From: a virus
DNA: 33,124 bases
Reading direction: 5' to 3' (one strand)
Virus record (IMG/VR): IMGVR_UViG_3300047476_000715
Span: 1-33,124 of that record
A model generated the notes under the pieces. That model made no database searches. It was given only the letters and a program-made list of their open reading frames with translations, and was not told the DNA's origin. The position numbers and the translations under genes were made by a program. The first letter of the stretch is position 1; every line of letters begins with the position of its first letter. Shown in pieces: positions 15,794 to 25,102 of the stretch.

Positions 15794-16930
15794 ATGAACG
15801 TCACCACAAACGTAGTCTTCGAAGTCCTACAAAACTCACAAAAGAGAATATCCATCATGCAAGGTGGAACAAGATCTGGTAAAACATACAATGTAATTAC
15901 ATGGTTTATCGTTAAGCTGCTTCAAGAGAAGGGAAAGACGCTGACAATATGTCGTAGCTCCTTACCATCCATCAAAGGTTCGGTTATGCGTGACTTTGTT
16001 GAGATATTGTCTAAATATGGGCTTTATAGCGAAGAGAAGCATAATAAGACCGATAACATCTACTTTTTGGGGAATAATGTGGTAGAGTTTGTTTCTACCG
16101 ACCAACCTCAGAAGATTAGAGGTCGAAAGCGTAATTACCTGTTTATAAACGAGGCGAATGAGGTAAACTACGAATCTTGGATGCAGTTGTCCCTAAGAAC
16201 GACTGAGAAGATAGTAATTGACTACAACCCTTCCGATTACTACTCCTGGATTTACGACAAGGTAGTTCCAAGAGAAGATGCCGACTTTACGATTACGACT
16301 TACCTAGACAACCCATTTTTAGAGAAAGGCATTATTGAAGAGATTGAGAGGCTTAAAGAGGCTGACCATGAATATTGGCGTGTTTATGGGTTAGGAGAGA
16401 GAGCAATATCCCAAGCGACCATTTATACGCACTGGAAGCGTAGAAGGAACTTCCCTGATGGCGGAGATGTGTTCTATGGACTTGACTTTGGCTTTAACAA
16501 CCAAACAGCACTTGTTAGGGTTAAGAACTTTGATGGAGAGTTATTCGTGGATCAGTTAATCTACGATACAAAGATGTCAACAGCTTTGCTGATTGATAGG
16601 ATGCGTTCTTTAGGGCTTGATAGAAACTCAGAGATATATGCCGACCCTGCTGAACCGAAAACCATATCTGAGATTAATAAGGCAGGATTTAACTTAAAGA
16701 GTGCTGTGAAGGATGTTTATGCAGGAATCAACAAGGTTAAGTCATTTCCACTACACATCAAGTCAGAATCTTTAGATTTGCTTGATGAGATTAAAAACTA
16801 TAAGTGGAAGACGGATGCAGATGGCAATACACTTGATGAACCTGTTAAGTTTCGAGATCACTTAATGGACTCTATGAGGTATGCCATATACACAAAATAT
16901 GCGAAAGTTAAAAGAGGATGGGTTGTATAG
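15794..16930 (+). CDS. terL: Terminase large subunit (PBSX/Terminase_3 type)
   Basis: The 378-aa product has an N-terminal ATPase with Walker A GGTRSGKT (24-31) and Walker B YLFINE (115-120), SLRTTEKIVIDYNPS (motif III region) and a C-terminal RNase H-like nuclease with acidic residues at FYGLDFGFNNQTAL (D231), YADPAE (D284) and FRDHLMDSMRYAI (D355, D359). It packages DNA into the procapsid and cuts it. The length is slightly short for the family (about 400-430). Two short repeats of CCCCCTAC lie upstream. Which end type (cos or pac) it makes is not readable here. Confidence 0.95.
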   Translation: MNVTTNVVFEVLQNSQKRISIMQGGTRSGKTYNVITWFIVKLLQEKGKTLTICRSSLPSIKGSVMRDFVEILSKYGLYSEEKHNKTDNIYFLGNNVVEFVSTDQPQKIRGRKRNYLFINEANEVNYESWMQLSLRTTEKIVIDYNPSDYYSWIYDKVVPREDADFTITTYLDNPFLEKGIIEEIERLKEADHEYWRVYGLGERAISQATIYTHWKRRRNFPDGGDVFYGLDFGFNNQTALVRVKNFDGELFVDQLIYDTKMSTALLIDRMRSLGLDRNSEIYADPAEPKTISEINKAGFNLKSAVKDVYAGINKVKSFPLHIKSESLDLLDEIKNYKWKTDADGNTLDEPVKFRDHLMDSMRYAIYTKYAKVKRGWVV

Positions 16931-16968: not shown

Positions 16969-18705
16969 GTGAATTTAACGGACATACTAAAGGCAGCTAA
17001 CCCTTTTCAGAAGAAGGCAGCTCCAAAGGTGACTTTTAACAATCCTTTTACTGACTTCGGTGGATTGATTGGAGGAAGAACACTTTATCCAGAATTAGAC
17101 CAGGAAAAATTTGTACTTGACTATAAAAACAATAGTGAGGTATATGCTATCATCAAACGTATCTCTAAAACTATTTCTACAGTACCTTTCTATGTTTATC
17201 AAGTAAGGAATAAGAAAGAGTTGACAAGATACAAGTCTATGTTGGCTAACGCTACTTCAACAGCAGATATTGCTAAAGCAGAGTTAGTTCGTGTAAAGGC
17301 AGTTGCAGAGATTGCTCAATCACCACTAAACGACTTATTAGAAAAACCAAACGAATACCAGTCATTCTCTGAGTTTATCGAGAGTGCTGTAGGGTATAAA
17401 CTAATTACTGGAAACACTTACATCTGGGCGAACAGACTAGAATCAGGTAAGGTTGCTGAACTTGTTACACTCCCATCTCAATACGTTGCTATCATCTCTG
17501 ATGGTACTATAAATGGGGTTGAAGGTTATTCTTTTACGCTAGTTGGATGGGATCAATTAGATGCGAAAGACGTAATCCATCTAAAATACTTCAACCCTTA
17601 CTTTGACACTAACGGTAATCAACTATACGGTTTATCACCTTTACAGGCTGCTTACAGAACTGTTCAGCGTTCTAACGATGCGAAAGATACATCTGTAGGT
17701 ATGTTGCAGAATCAAGGACCTAAAGGTATCTTATCTGCTGACGAATCAAATGACTTTGGACCAGAAGCAGCAGGAAAGCTTAAAGAAGATTTCTACAATC
17801 AATACGGAACTAAGACACAAGCAGGTATCGTAAAGAATGCAGGTAGAATATTGATTGCAGGTGCAAAGCTTAACTGGATTAACATGGGATTAAGCCCTGT
17901 GGATTTACAGTTATTAGAATCAGAGAAAATTACACTTAGAGAACTTTGTAATGTTTACGGAGTGAACTCTGCGTTGTTTAACGATCCTGATAACAAGACT
18001 TACAACAACATGAAGGAAGCTAAGAAGGAAATGTTGACTCAAGTAGTCCTTCCTGAATTAGTAGCTCTTCGTGATGCGTTTAATAGATTCTTCTCAACAG
18101 AGATTGGTCAAGGTTACTATATCGATTTCGATTTGACAGTATTCCCAGAATTACAAGAGGACATGAAAGAGCTTAGTGCTATCCTTTCACAATCTTGGTG
18201 GATTACTCCAAACGAGAAGAGAGCAGCTATGCGTTATGACACTATGGAAGGAACTGAAATGGATGAGATATTTATCCCAGCAGGTTACTTGCCTATTGAT
18301 GAGTTAACAATGTTGCAAGACCCTAGAGATGCTCAACAGCAAAGTGACTATAATTTGCCACCTGTAAAAAGTGAAGGTTTTTTTTTGAGTAAGAACGAAC
18401 AAGTAGACGAAGTATTCACAAAGTACAAAGCTACCGTTAACATGAGCTACTCAGAATTAGAAGCTTGGTCAAATACAGAGTGTTCTAAGAAAGCATCACT
18501 TGATAGAAGCCCTATCACTAGAAACCTAAGACTATTGTCTAAGAAGAAAGAAGATTGGACTACTAATGATGCAGAAGATGCAAACAGAACTATAAGCTTT
18601 GTGAGCAGAATGAAAGGAGCAGAGCAAGGTGAACCAGCCGCAAAAGGTTGTCCATCTAAAAGAGATATATCACTTAAAAACTGGGCTTACGACCCTTCAA
18701 AATAA
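16969..18705 (+). CDS. Portal protein (HK97 type) with extra C-terminal domain
   Basis: The 578-aa product starts at GTG; no in-frame ATG is near. The core (about 40-460) is a typical HK97-like portal: RISKTISTVPFYVYQV, LVTLPSQYVAII, VIHLKYFNPYF, YGLSPLQAAYRTVQRSN, LGLSP-type segment NMGLSPVDLQLLESEKITLR, and VNSALFNDPDNKTYNNMKEA. Residues about 480-578 are an added domain: VNMSYSELEAWSNTECSKKA, SPITRNLRLLSKKKEDW and a closing ISLKNWAYDPS. A run of nine T (18378-18386, codons 470-473) sits right before the linker; slippage there ends translation within two codons. The portal forms the dodecameric DNA entrance. The C-terminal domain resembles DUF3140, from memory. Confidence 0.85.
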   Translation: MNLTDILKAANPFQKKAAPKVTFNNPFTDFGGLIGGRTLYPELDQEKFVLDYKNNSEVYAIIKRISKTISTVPFYVYQVRNKKELTRYKSMLANATSTADIAKAELVRVKAVAEIAQSPLNDLLEKPNEYQSFSEFIESAVGYKLITGNTYIWANRLESGKVAELVTLPSQYVAIISDGTINGVEGYSFTLVGWDQLDAKDVIHLKYFNPYFDTNGNQLYGLSPLQAAYRTVQRSNDAKDTSVGMLQNQGPKGILSADESNDFGPEAAGKLKEDFYNQYGTKTQAGIVKNAGRILIAGAKLNWINMGLSPVDLQLLESEKITLRELCNVYGVNSALFNDPDNKTYNNMKEAKKEMLTQVVLPELVALRDAFNRFFSTEIGQGYYIDFDLTVFPELQEDMKELSAILSQSWWITPNEKRAAMRYDTMEGTEMDEIFIPAGYLPIDELTMLQDPRDAQQQSDYNLPPVKSEGFFLSKNEQVDEVFTKYKATVNMSYSELEAWSNTECSKKASLDRSPITRNLRLLSKKKEDWTTNDAEDANRTISFVSRMKGAEQGEPAAKGCPSKRDISLKNWAYDPSK

Positions 18706-18710
18706 TAAAT

Positions 18711-19112
18711 ATGGAATTTAAATCATTTGACGAAGCTTTTAAGATTATAGAAGATAACTTATCAGAAAAGAGAGTAAACAAGACTAACCCAAAAGGTATT
18801 AGCCATGCTAACAGTTTAATATCAGGCGGTGATGTTACAAGACCAGCGTCTTGGAAAAGACCATCTGTAGAAATGGAGAATGCTTATATTGAGAAAAATG
18901 GATGGGATGAGTTTTCTAAATGGTTTTTAGGTGTTGATACATCTATGGACAAAGAAACCAAAGGGCACTATGGCTACATATACACTTCTGACTTTAAAAC
19001 AGTAGACAGAGAAGGATTACGAGCAATCAGACAAAGGTCAGCAAAAAACGGACTAAAAGGTGTGTTTGCAGCAGCAGGAAAAATGATTGAAGCAATAGAT
19101 CCAAAAGATTAG
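18711..19112 (+). CDS. Head-locus protein of unknown function
   Basis: The 133-aa product shows SKWFLGVDTSMDKETKGHYG followed by YIYTSDFKTVDREGLRAIRQ and AAAGKMIEAID. The order (W.LG.D...K..Y......DF..V.R..L.AIR.R....G...V..AAG...E.ID) resembles a helical module attached to some phage head-maturation proteases or portals (from memory), here as a separate gene. It is 5 bases after the portal and abuts the minor head protein. A structural or assembly role in the head is inferred. Confidence 0.6.
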   Translation: MEFKSFDEAFKIIEDNLSEKRVNKTNPKGISHANSLISGGDVTRPASWKRPSVEMENAYIEKNGWDEFSKWFLGVDTSMDKETKGHYGYIYTSDFKTVDREGLRAIRQRSAKNGLKGVFAAAGKMIEAIDPKD

Positions 19113-19952
19113 ATGCCTAAAATACTTTATCCATCACAGCAGTTTGCTTTGCAACAAAAGATTGCAAGGAAATCAATCAGAGAGTTTCAGCCTAAAATAA
19201 AACAGGCGTTACAAGCTGACTTTGATAAAGCTGCTCAAATGGTTGAAGCATTAGGAGTAGAACAAGCAGCTAACAATCGTGCAGGATTTTTTACTGGCGA
19301 TAAGATTAATAATATTTTACGAACTTTGTATGAGTCAACTGGCGGTTATACTGCCATGAGATACCAGCAGATGTTTGAAACAACTAAGAAAGCGGAAGAG
19401 ATTGACCTTGACCCTTTAAATATTTTGGATGAGTGGTTGGTATTTATGTTATCTTATTGGACTGCCATTAGCGGACCTAAGATGTATGGCATAGAGAATA
19501 CTACTGAAAACGAAATAGCTCGTATATTAGCGAGTGTTATAAAGTATGGTCAAGAGAATGGATTGTCACAAAACGAGGTAAACAAGTTGGCTATTCAGAC
19601 TCTAAGAGAAGGAAAGATTAATAACGCAAGGAGTTTACTTATAGCAAGAACTGAAAGCCATCAGGCATTAAGTGCAGGTGCTATGGGGGCGGTGAAAGCG
19701 GCAGGTGTTCCAGTATTAAAACAATGGATAGCTGCTGAATATCCAGCTAAGAGTGGTAAGCCAAGATTATGGCACAGAGATTTAGATAGACAAACGAATC
19801 CTGACAACAAAGGTGTAAGAATCCCTGTTAATCAACCATTCCTAGTAAATACTCCTGACTATGGTGTAATAGAGATGCAATATGCTCATGATGCGGCAGG
19901 GTTAGCAGTAAACAACTGTAACTGTAGATGCTGCACAGTGTATATAGCTTAA
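19113..19952 (+). CDS. Minor head protein (Mu F / SPP1 gp7-like)
   Basis: The 279-aa product has an N-terminal helical region and a C-terminal F-domain: ARTESHQALSAGAMGAVKAA, VLKQWIAAEYP, LWHRDLD, DYGVIEMQYAHDAAG and the Cys cluster NNCNCRCCTVYIA. These are the conserved elements of Mu gpF/SPP1 gp7 proteins, which bind the portal and enter the procapsid in small numbers. The length is close to SPP1 gp7. It sits between the portal-associated gene and the protease, the usual order. Confidence 0.88.
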   Translation: MPKILYPSQQFALQQKIARKSIREFQPKIKQALQADFDKAAQMVEALGVEQAANNRAGFFTGDKINNILRTLYESTGGYTAMRYQQMFETTKKAEEIDLDPLNILDEWLVFMLSYWTAISGPKMYGIENTTENEIARILASVIKYGQENGLSQNEVNKLAIQTLREGKINNARSLLIARTESHQALSAGAMGAVKAAGVPVLKQWIAAEYPAKSGKPRLWHRDLDRQTNPDNKGVRIPVNQPFLVNTPDYGVIEMQYAHDAAGLAVNNCNCRCCTVYIA

Positions 19953-19962
19953 ATAAACAAAT

Positions 19963-20727
19963 ATGAGTAACTTTTATAAAAAGAAAGCGGTAAGTGGTGC
20001 TCCAGTAGATATGGAGGATGGTAGCAGAATAATCACTGTCTACTATTCTGCGTTTGGTAATGTGGACAGCGATGGCGATGTTATTGTGCCAGGTGCATTC
20101 ACTAAAACCCTAAAAGAAAACGGACCTAATGCTAAGAATAGAATCTGGCATTTATTTAACCACTCAACTGAAAAGCCAATCGCTAAGCCATTTGAAATGA
20201 TGGAAGATGGATTTGGTTTAAAGGCTAGAGTAAAGATGCCTAATACAACATTAGGTAACGATACTTATGAGTTGTATAAAGAAGGTCATATCACAGAACA
20301 TAGCATCGGCTTCCAGACAATCAAGTCACAAGCGAAGTCAGGCTATAACGAAATCAATGAAATAAAATTGTTTGAGGGTAGTTCAGTATTGTGGGGTGCA
20401 AACGCAAATACGCCTACAGTTGGAGTGAAGAGTCAAATTAAGTCTGTTCTTGTGGATGAGATGGGTAAAACTATCAAGTCTTTAAGAAACGGTCACTTTA
20501 CTGACGAAACATTCGAATTGTTAGAACTTAAACTTAAACAGTTACAACAATATCTTGCTGAGATGGAAGAAGAAGAGTCAGTCGACCTTGAAGAACAACC
20601 GCAAACATCTTCTGAAGGCACAGTCGAAATGCCAGAGGAAGAAGCATTGGAGGAAGAGGAAGACCCGATGATTTCCGTTGAAATCGAGATAAACAAATAT
20701 TTACAATCATTTAAAATTTTCAACTAA
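19963..20727 (+). CDS. Prohead protease (HK97 type, S78)
   Basis: The 254-aa product has a protease domain (about 15-150): YYSAFGNVDSDGDVIVPGAF, catalytic His in HLFNHSTEKP (H67), catalytic Ser in EHSIGFQT (S114), and LFEGSSVLWGANANTP. The C-terminal 90 residues are acidic and coiled (EEEESVDLEEQ, EEALEEEEDP), a scaffold-like tail, so protease and scaffold may be fused. It cuts the capsid delta domain and itself during maturation. It overlaps the capsid gene (TAATG). Confidence 0.9.
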   Translation: MSNFYKKKAVSGAPVDMEDGSRIITVYYSAFGNVDSDGDVIVPGAFTKTLKENGPNAKNRIWHLFNHSTEKPIAKPFEMMEDGFGLKARVKMPNTTLGNDTYELYKEGHITEHSIGFQTIKSQAKSGYNEINEIKLFEGSSVLWGANANTPTVGVKSQIKSVLVDEMGKTIKSLRNGHFTDETFELLELKLKQLQQYLAEMEEEESVDLEEQPQTSSEGTVEMPEEEALEEEEDPMISVEIEINKYLQSFKIFN

Positions 20728-21893
20728 TGGTAGAAGAAATCAAAAGTGCTTTCGAAGGCGTAAAGACCGAAGTAAACGGTGCTATCGATACACTAAAATC
20801 TGAAAACGCAGTTGCGGTAGAAGGATTAAAATCAGAATTAGAAGAATTAAAATCTCAAGTTGCTGTAGTGAAAGACGCTGCTGACAAATTAGAGGCAAAA
20901 AACAATCGTAAGACAATGAGTGAAAATCAAGTAAAAGGGTTCAATGCAACTCTTGCTGAAGCAATCGAGAAGAATGCTGACAGCATCGCAAAATTAGGTC
21001 GTGGTGAGCAGAAGCGTTCTGGCTTTATCTTAGACACTAAGGCAGTAGGTAACATGACTGAAGCAGTTAACTTAACTGGTGACATCCAAAGACAATATGC
21101 TCCTCAAGTATATGCTCTTCCTTCTCGTAAGGTGCATTTGAGAAGTTTATTACCAGTAGGTACAATCTCTACAGGTTTATTCACTTTCCCTAAGGAAACT
21201 GGTGGTGAAGGTAGTGCAGCTCCTCAAACTCAAGGTTCTGCTAAATCTCAAATCGATTTCGATATCACAATGACTGATGCTCCTGCACAGTACATCGCTG
21301 GTTTAGTAAGAATCTCTCGTCAAATGTTAGATGACGTTCCTGCTATGACTTCTTTCTTACAAGCTCGTTTGTTAGAGAAGTATTTATTAGCTGAAGATGC
21401 TCAGTTATTGAACGGTGATGGTACAGCTCCAAACTTAACTGGTTTGACTATCAATGCTGCTACTCCAACTGGTGCTGCAACTGTAGACGTTGAGCAATTA
21501 GTACAAGCTATTGCACAAGTTTCTGCTAGTAACTATACTGCTAATGGTATTTTGATCAACCCAACTGACTGGGCTAACATCGTTAACACTAAGAACACTA
21601 ACGCTGCTTACAGCTTACCTGCTTCTACAGTTGTTACAACTGATGGCAACTTGTCTATCGCTGGTATCCCTGTGTTCCAATCTACAGCTATCGCTGCTGA
21701 TAAGTTCTTAGTGGGTGACTGGGCTATGGGTGCTCAAATCATGCAAAATCAAGGTATCTCTGTTCAATTCTCTGAAATGGATAGCGACAACTTCCAAAAG
21801 AACTTGATTACTGTAAGAGTTGAAGCTCGTATTGCATTCCCTATCTACTACAACAGTGCGTTTGTATATGGTGATTTCGGTAACGTAGCTTAA
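20727..21893 (+). CDS. Major capsid protein (HK97 fold)
   Basis: The 388-aa product has an N-terminal coiled-coil delta domain (about 1-75, ALDTLKSENAVAVEGLKSEL-like repeats) that the protease should remove, and an HK97-fold body: LPSRKVHLRSLLPVGTISTG, SAKSQIDFDITMTDAPAQYI, ARLLEKYLLAEDAQLLNGDG, ASNYTANGILINPTDWANI and the spine/E-loop end VRVEARIAFPIYYNSAFVYG. Codons are strongly biased, as expected for an abundant protein. It is followed by a terminator and a promoter-like box, so the head genes form one unit. Confidence 0.95.
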   Translation: MVEEIKSAFEGVKTEVNGAIDTLKSENAVAVEGLKSELEELKSQVAVVKDAADKLEAKNNRKTMSENQVKGFNATLAEAIEKNADSIAKLGRGEQKRSGFILDTKAVGNMTEAVNLTGDIQRQYAPQVYALPSRKVHLRSLLPVGTISTGLFTFPKETGGEGSAAPQTQGSAKSQIDFDITMTDAPAQYIAGLVRISRQMLDDVPAMTSFLQARLLEKYLLAEDAQLLNGDGTAPNLTGLTINAATPTGAATVDVEQLVQAIAQVSASNYTANGILINPTDWANIVNTKNTNAAYSLPASTVVTTDGNLSIAGIPVFQSTAIAADKFLVGDWAMGAQIMQNQGISVQFSEMDSDNFQKNLITVRVEARIAFPIYYNSAFVYGDFGNVA

Positions 21894-24422: not shown

Positions 24423-24794
24423 ATGAGAGGACATTACGAACTATCCCTAAGCGATGGGACTAAGATACCTATGAGATTTTGTACATGGTCTTTAAAGAGA
24501 TTCTGTCAACTTCAAGGTATTGGACCATCTGAAATAGGAGAAGCTTTAAGTGGATCTAGCCAACTAGACGCTATGACTAATTTAATTAAGGCTGCGGCAG
24601 AATATCCTTTGTATAAAGAAGGTATAACGCCAAAAATTAGTGAATTAGATGTATGTGATTGGATAGATGATATTGGAGGTATAGCAAGTGAAAAATTTCA
24701 AAATATTATTACTGCTTTATCTGATAGTATGAATAGTGGAATTGAGTCTACTCCAGTAAAGAAAGGCAAAGGTTCTGATGTAAAAAAAAATTAG
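24423..24794 (+). CDS. Tail assembly chaperone, zero-frame product (gpG-like)
   Basis: The 123-aa product starts MRGHYELSLSDGTKIPMRFC and has a helical body with IKAAAEYPLYKEGITPKISE then CDWIDDIGGIASEKFQNIIT and a basic end (KKGKGSDVKKN). The position between the tail tube and tape measure genes, and the slippery A9 at its end, identify a gpG-type chaperone that holds the tape measure during tail assembly. The leader ACACCAAAAAAACCAAAAC before its ATG matches the one at 2317. Confidence 0.8.
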   Translation: MRGHYELSLSDGTKIPMRFCTWSLKRFCQLQGIGPSEIGEALSGSSQLDAMTNLIKAAAEYPLYKEGITPKISELDVCDWIDDIGGIASEKFQNIITALSDSMNSGIESTPVKKGKGSDVKKN

Positions 24795-25102
24795 AGTGGA
24801 TTGAAATTGAAAGATATACAATGGGGGAGTGCCAAGTGCTTCCCCATTTGTTTTGGGATATGACGATGGCAGAGGTTGATTTTGTATGGTATGGATACCG
24901 TCATAAGGAAGAACAAGAATGGTTAAGAACAAGATGGCAAACCACTATTCTAATTAACATACAACTACCAAAAGGGAAAAAAGTCAAAGCACACGAGCTT
25001 TTACCACTTGACTGCGATAATCGTAACTTTGTAAAGCAGAGGGTTATGACTAATGATGAACTGCAAGAGGTATTAAAAAAGTATAACAATATTAAAGTTT
25101 AG
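24423..25102 (+). CDS. Tail assembly chaperone frameshift fusion (gpGT-like), about 226 aa
   Basis: A -1 slip on A AAA AAA (24782-24788, in the zero frame GTA AAA AAA) joins residues 1-122 of the upstream product to a -1 frame that stays open to 25102: LEWIEIERYTMGECQVLPHL then FWDMTMAEVDFVWYGYRHKE. The fused C-terminal part is acidic at first, then WY/HKE-rich, as in lambda gpT-type extensions. The reading frame has an ATG at 24821, but this alone would give a short protein; the open frame from the slip site favours frameshifting. The rare fusion joins the tail tube and tape measure. Confidence 0.8.
24782..24788 (+). promoter_or_regulatory. Programmed -1 ribosomal frameshift site (A AAA AAA)
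   Basis: Nine A residues (24782-24790) hold the slippery heptamer A AAA AAA in the zero frame, just before the stop at 24792-24794. The -1 frame after the slip is open for another 104 codons. The arrangement matches the tail chaperone slippery sites of siphoviruses. Confidence 0.85.

What the first reader, a model, noticed from the sequence alone, without database searches (positions are those of the whole stretch)
18376..18390. T9 run at the junction of portal core and extension: possible production of two portal forms
In the portal gene, GGT TTT TTT TTG gives a T TTT TTT heptamer in frame (18378-18384), right where the core portal ends and the extra domain begins. A slip in either direction meets a stop within two to four codons (GFFFE-stop or GFF-stop), leaving a normal-length portal of about 472-474 residues. 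Ribosomal or transcriptional slippage could thus set a ratio of short to long portal subunits in the ring. The same genome uses an A9 for its tail chaperone.
Basis: partly seen in the sequence, partly recalled or inferred. Interest (0 to 1): 0.65.

Follow-up and report, generated by a model that had tools for sequence, protein, structure and literature searches.

The report
Slippery T9 makes two portals
A run of nine T's in a bacterial virus's DNA-gateway gene is kept unchanged across its relatives while the DNA around it drifts, which suggests the virus deliberately misreads it to make a short and a long form of the gateway protein.

Summary
The T9 run (18378-18386) is real, in frame (GGT TTT TTT TTG), and sits where a PF04860 portal core ends and a roughly 105-residue helical domain begins. 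One T9 in one gene is unremarkable: 1991 of 20000 synonymous shuffles of the gene contain one. Its conservation is not. A codon-blind scan of IMG/VR found 78 contigs encoding the junction peptide; 78 of 78 carry exactly T9. Across 60 distinct genes the five junction codons show the fewest synonymous changes of any five-codon window. Losing or gaining one T gives a stop within 0-6 codons (79 of 79). Close relatives (93.8-97.2% core identity) lack the domain and end naturally at residue 467, and the extension switched on or off at least 8-9 times on the portal tree, so the short portal is a working protein. The same phages keep an exact A9 in their tail chaperone (80 of 80).

Best reading: a selected slippage site yielding 53- and 65-kDa portals, probably by RNA polymerase slippage; ribosomal slippage is not excluded. 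No RNA or protein was measured. The domain is a promiscuous head-protein module. New variant of a known kind.

The parts
16969..18369 (+). portal core, 467 codons; same end as the natural short alleles of relatives
   Evidence: PF04860 6e-62; short alleles stop after PPVK
18370..18387 (+). linker SEGFFL holding the slippage site; lies in a disordered stretch of the model
   Evidence: whole-portal model pLDDT <50 at residues 438-476, model of low overall confidence; GFFL absent from every other carrier of the domain in alignment A3
18378..18386 (+). T9 slippage site (GGT TTT TTT TTG)
18386..18388 (+). TGA met if one T is lost (+1 frame): GFF-stop, 472 aa
   Evidence: EGFF-stop in 79 of 79 junctions
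18390..18392 (+). TAA met if one T is gained (-1 frame): GFFFE-stop, 474 aa
   Evidence: stop 1-6 codons after GFFF in 79 of 79 junctions
18388..18702 (+). C-terminal extension, helical DUF3140-like domain, 105 residues
   Evidence: PF11338 28.6 bits, cut-off 25, scanned alone; model pLDDT 92
18711..19112 (+). 133-aa gene, second swappable cassette between portal and MuF gene
   Evidence: present or absent independently of the extension; phrog_34096 5e-6
19113..19952 (+). MuF-like head morphogenesis gene; directly follows the short portal in cassette-less relatives
   Evidence: phrog_2468 7e-25
24782..24790 (+). A9 in the tail assembly chaperone gene (24423-24794), companion slippage site
   Evidence: 80 of 80 relatives A9

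Best explanation
The T9 is a selected, programmed slippage site. Most gene products are read straight through into the extension and give the long portal (578 aa). When RNA polymerase (more likely) or the ribosome slips on the run, reading leaves the frame and meets a stop almost at once, giving a short portal of 472-474 aa, practically the same as the natural short portal of sister phages. A 12-subunit portal ring (ring size from general knowledge) would then hold a mixture, with only some subunits carrying the helical domain. Because that domain is found attached to, or encoded next to, proteins that build the head (portal, MuF, prohead protease, protease-capsid fusions), it probably works inside the procapsid at the portal vertex. 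Shown: the sequence, its conservation, the stops, the natural short alleles, the domain's promiscuity. Inferred: that slippage occurs, at which level, the ratio, and the mixed ring.
For: 78 of 78 contigs exactly T9 in a scan that allowed any Phe and Leu codon in EGFFLSK[NS]E. A second scan allowing 6-12 bases at the run found 77 places, all of the T9 length, so no T8 or T10. In 60 distinct genes, F471 and F472 are the only two of 18 conserved Phe columns with no synonymous change, and L473 has one (TTG to TTA, which keeps T9), against a mean of 5.2 changes per conserved column over 422 columns; an extension-only tree gives the same picture. T9 survives different flanks: GAT GAT T9 GGAAAG in L053 and L121, GAA GAT T9 GAG in L105. 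GFFL is missing from all other carriers of the domain. Stops in both other frames at 79 of 79 junctions. 29 of 95 sampled portals are short alleles, with at least 8-9 switches on the tree. Companion A9 in the chaperone, 80 of 80. Control: an A9 in the terminase gene of the same phages is broken by synonymous changes in 7 of the 40 genomes with the same QKKI peptide.
Against: No RNA-seq, proteomics or reporter data. Distant portals fused to the same domain do without any run: L354 ends with the domain, and L330, L336 and L384 are portal-domain-MuF fusions, so a mixture is not a general need. The terminase A9 kept in 33 of 52 genomes suggests that nine-base runs are not very costly in this host, so slippage may be modest. 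Flanking codons E469 (GAA) and K475 (AAG) are also invariant, which homopolymer slippage alone does not explain.
Confidence: 0.75

Rival explanations
1. Same outcome, but the ribosome slips (-1) on the U UUU UUU heptamer; the run has no special effect on RNA polymerase.
For: In-phase heptamer; the chaperone site of the same genome is of a type usually translational in phages (passages in PMC5009743 and PMC9965538).
Against: No downstream structure (z -0.16) and no convincing covariation in 15 relatives (1 of 13 predicted pairs). The full T9 is kept, including the two T's of the Leu codon beyond the heptamer, although CTN makes up 38% of Leu codons in these genes. Exactly nine at both sites.
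Confidence: 0.33
2. The run is conserved for other reasons (codon preference, the FFL residues themselves, a DNA or RNA signal) and does not slip to any useful extent.
For: A T9 arises in 10% of synonymous shuffles; nine-base A runs are tolerated in the terminase gene of relatives.
Against: Phe codons are 60% TTT and Leu codons 23% TTG across these genes, yet the site never loses its T9; FFL is not part of the domain elsewhere; no terminator-like hairpin upstream.
Confidence: 0.14
3. A contingency locus: replication slippage on T9 switches whole genomes between long and short portal.
For: Short alleles exist in nature.
Against: No T8 or T10 among 77 places; all 29 short alleles lack the domain altogether rather than carrying a shifted run. 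Contigs are consensus sequences, so rare variants are invisible.
Confidence: 0.05
4. The TTG at the end of the run (18385-18387) is an internal start giving a free domain, like the separate gene of L122-L203.
For: In other phages the domain is a separate gene just after the portal; TTG is in phase.
Against: One of 78 contigs has TTA instead; the start idea does not explain exactly nine T's.
Confidence: 0.03

Closest known systems
Thermus thermophilus dnaX (A9 transcriptional slippage; passage in PMC1088944)
   Same: Nine-base homopolymer late in a coding sequence; straight reading gives the long protein and slippage gives a shorter functional form.
   Different: Here a T9 in a phage portal gene; slippage not measured.
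Ig-like domains added to phage virion proteins by frameshifting, e.g. phage T3 coat protein (passages in PMC5009743 and PMC9965538)
   Same: A promiscuous accessory domain carried by only some copies of a head protein through recoding.
   Different: Helical DUF3140-like domain; on the portal; the domain is in the zero frame and slippage removes it rather than adds it.
Tail assembly chaperone frameshift (lambda G/GT type; cited)
   Same: Same genome has an A9 there in the same codon phase.
   Different: There slippage extends the product; in the portal it truncates it.
Shigella mxiE, spa33 and mxiA slippage (passages in PMC5009743 and PMC1088944)
   Same: mxiE slips on a run of U's; spa33 and mxiA yield truncated products.
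   Different: Bacterial secretion genes, not a virion ring.

Membership tests
Programmed transcriptional slippage site (dnaX type) | Run of nine or more A or T inside a coding sequence | tested here: met
   T9 at 18378-18386
Programmed transcriptional slippage site (dnaX type) | Run conserved at the nucleotide level beyond the protein's need | tested here: met
Programmed transcriptional slippage site (dnaX type) | Slipped frames give a defined alternative product | tested here: met
   79 of 79 junctions stop within 6 codons in both frames; by sequence only
Programmed transcriptional slippage site (dnaX type) | mRNAs of variable run length | not testable with these tools
   no RNA reads
Programmed -1 ribosomal frameshift site | In-phase slippery heptamer | tested here: met
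   T TTT TTT 18378-18384
Programmed -1 ribosomal frameshift site | Downstream stimulatory structure (common, not obligatory) | tested here: not met
   z -0.16; 1 of 13 pairs with a compensatory change
Frameshift-appended Ig-like domain | The appended domain has an Ig fold | tested here: not met
   model is helical, pLDDT 92
HK97-type portal (PF04860) | Profile match over the core | tested here: met
   6.1e-62
DUF3140 (PF11338) | Score above the curated cut-off of 25 bits | tested here: inconclusive
   28.6 bits for the extension alone but 23.0 within the whole protein

The most novel reading that the evidence does not exclude
RNA polymerase slippage on a cassette-borne T9 sets how many subunits of the portal ring carry an interior helical domain, so that a nominally homomeric ring is built as a controlled mixture; the domain cassette moves on and off portals by recombination and brings its own slippage site along.
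Probability: 0.5. Interest if true: 0.78.

Novelty: new variant of a known kind. Interest (0 to 1): 0.68.

Why it matters
Portal rings are treated as rings of identical subunits. If this reading is right, a large group of environmental phages builds mixed portal rings, with the ratio written into a nine-base run. It would be a recoding case in a portal gene, which my literature searches did not turn up (open-licence PMC papers only). It also gives a natural experiment: near-identical phages with long-plus-short, short-only, and (in a more distant group) separately encoded domain.

Tried and rejected
Terminator: no GC-rich hairpin before the run (z 0.64). Ribosomal pseudoknot or hairpin: none found. 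Incidental codon bias: rejected by the synonymous-change analysis. Phase variation: no T8/T10. Fold of the extension: Foldseek gave no PDB match at E <= 0.001; the aligner's second look gave 14 chains with Z of 2 or more, the best 2.8; the one clear match in the viral library is the HSTV-2 prohead protease (E 5e-6), which the sequence search had already found. PDB by sequence: nothing convincing. The whole-portal model is of low confidence (pLDDT 63) and is used only to note that the linker is disordered. A genome-contig scan found one relative, L268, in a record titled Paceibacterota. DUF3140: no paper found. Kuravirus 'two isoforms' concern the capsid protein, not the portal. The skin-phage paper mentions slippage for topoisomerase and tape measure proteins, not portal.

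Rows dropped: the tree left out L122 and L123 (different portal family), L252 (same contig as L067), and L067 and L068 (5' ends cut). In one search, L099, L119, L120 and L122 gave no core match beside the extension match; the one 'T3' locus there should be L123, inferred from its coordinates (core ends 4939, domain starts 5001), where the domain is a separate gene. In one search, 53 of 57 matched loci gave a row and one of those (L061) was empty.

Full report
What is there. The window is a 33-kb record of a tailed phage with the head-gene order terminase (15794-16930), portal (16969-18705), 133-aa gene (18711-19112), MuF-like gene (19113-19952), S78 protease (19963-20727) and capsid (20727-21893). 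G000 is a virus record. The portal gene reads GGT TTT TTT TTG at 18376-18387, a run of nine T's. It and the A9 at 24782-24790 are the only A/T runs of 8 or more in the window. The nearest annotated isolates by portal are Cellulophaga phages at 34-35% identity, so the host is probably a member of the Bacteroidota (inference).

Is it more than chance? The T9 alone is not: 1991 of 20000 synonymous shuffles of the gene contain one, and dinucleotide shuffles of the window give more T8 than are seen. Conservation is the test. One search found 261 relatives of the whole protein and kept 80. Every fused junction held has nine T's: 103 of 103 loci, with some contigs held twice; the one further locus in that count should be L123, where the domain is a separate gene. 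To avoid choosing by sequence, I scanned IMG/VR for the peptide EGFFLSK[NS]E with Phe and Leu in any codon (Ser only as AGY): 78 contigs, 78 with T9, the Leu codon being TTG in 77 and TTA in 1. Neighbouring codons vary in the same set (AGT 45, AGC 33; GAG 39, GAA 39). Three further contigs with other flanks (L053, L121: GAT GAT T9 GGAAAG; L105: GAA GAT T9 GAG) also have T9. A scan with 6 to 12 bases allowed at the run found 77 places, all of T9 length.

Synonymous changes were counted by parsimony on a tree of 60 distinct genes (65 genes before removal of duplicates). Over 422 conserved degenerate codon columns the mean is 5.2 changes, and 36 columns have none. Of 18 conserved Phe columns only 471 and 472 have none. 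Residues 469-473 form the least changed five-codon window of the gene (1 change; next best 3). Recounting on a tree of the extension alone (56 distinct sequences) gives 0, 0 and 1 for F, F and L against a mean of 4.9. A control comes from the same genomes: the terminase gene of many relatives has an incidental A9 in the codons for QKKI; of the 40 genomes with that peptide, 33 keep A9 and 7 break it synonymously (52 genomes informative, 19 without A9 in all). The chaperone A9 is unbroken in 80 of 80 relatives.

What slippage would make. Loss of one T gives EGFF-stop in 79 of 79 junctions (78 contigs and the window). Gain of one gives a stop after EGFFFE (45), EGFFFEQE (30), EGFFFEQERKD (3) or EGFFFK (1). 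The short products are 53.1 and 53.4 kDa, the long one 65.1 kDa, and the window's portal cut at the natural short end (residue 467) would be 52.5 kDa.

Natural short portals. Thirteen loci (L069-L080, L082; core identity 93.8-97.2%) stop after PPVK at residue 467; sixteen (L251, L253-L267) lack the extension too. In 27 of these 29 the MuF gene follows directly; in L069 and L253 the 133-aa gene stands between. Of 69 fused rows (window included, L252 repeating L067's contig), 53 have extension plus 133-aa gene, 12 have the extension only, and 4 are cut by the contig end. So extension and 133-aa gene are two cassettes that come and go separately. On a tree of 95 portal cores (66 fused, 29 short) the extension changed state at least 9 times, at least 8 by well-supported branches. 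The sample is the best-scoring hits of two searches, not a census.

The domain. Alone it matches DUF3140 at 28.6 bits (cut-off 25); within the whole protein it scores 23.0. The model is helical with pLDDT 92 and has no convincing PDB counterpart. Relatives of the domain occur as a separate gene between portal and 133-aa gene (L122, L123) and as a separate ORF without a nine-base run nearby in the 80 loci (a few have an A7), in portal-domain-MuF fusion proteins (L330, L336, L384), at the end of another portal without a run (L354), before a protease-capsid fusion (L347), and in halovirus prohead proteases. In the 35-sequence alignment A3 the GFFL stretch (or DFFL in L053) is present only in the T9 portals. 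In the whole-portal model the linker is in a low-confidence stretch (residues 438-476; model pLDDT 63, so this is weak).

How it probably works. Straight reading gives the long portal; slippage gives a short portal equivalent to a natural allele; both would enter the ring. I favour RNA polymerase slippage because exactly nine bases are kept at both sites, because the T's of the third codon are kept although the heptamer does not need them, and because no stimulatory structure is found. The passage on Thermus dnaX describes the same logic with an A9 and 50% short product (PMC1088944), and that paper's abstract takes nine bases as the length at which selection against runs becomes evident in many bacteria. 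Against a high rate: relatives tolerate an A9 in the terminase gene. Ribosomal slippage on U UUU UUU gives the same products and is not excluded. The location of the domain inside the procapsid is inferred from the company it keeps.

Literature. Searches for portal protein with transcriptional slippage, frameshift, isoforms or programmed ribosomal frameshift brought up no portal case in the listings, nor in the passages I read of PMC6095929 and PMC9965538; the other listed papers were not opened. The library is open-licence PMC only. The recoding review PMC5009743, of which the first 300,000 characters are held, does not contain the word portal, nor does the main text of the GeneTack survey PMC3711429.

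Limits. No transcripts, proteins or reads were examined; contigs are consensus sequences; many contigs may come from similar samples, so counts are not independent events, which is why the tree-based counts matter more than 78 of 78.

Noticed in passing
window 24423-25102: Tail chaperone with exact A9 (GTA AAA AAA AAT TAG); -1 reading fuses it to the next ORF; 80 of 80 relatives keep A9.
   Followed up: yes
window 18711-19112; L069, L253: 133-aa gene is a second independent cassette between portal and MuF gene; it and a relative match the start of phrog_34096, head maturation protease.
   Followed up: partly
terminase gene of relatives, e.g. L004:3869: A9 in the codons for NSQKKIS in 33 of 52 relatives, absent from the window (CAAAAGAGA); broken synonymously in 7.
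   Followed up: yes
L347:3998-6118: Single protein with the DUF3140-like domain, S78-like protease and capsid regions; several similar loci.
   Followed up: partly
L330, L336, L384: Portal, DUF3140-like domain and MuF fused in one polypeptide of about 880 residues.
   Followed up: partly
window 18373-18375 and 18391-18393: Codons E469 (GAA) and K475 (AAG) beside the run are also invariant in the 60 genes where the residue is kept; unexplained.
   Followed up: no
L011:10515, L036:10515, L483:1142: A9 near the start of a small gene (MGKFKINVQGFEYVKKKLD...) of relatives.
   Followed up: no
L268: A contig binned as Paceibacterota carries a virus-like protein with the domain, 56% identical; possibly a mis-binned virus.
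   Followed up: no
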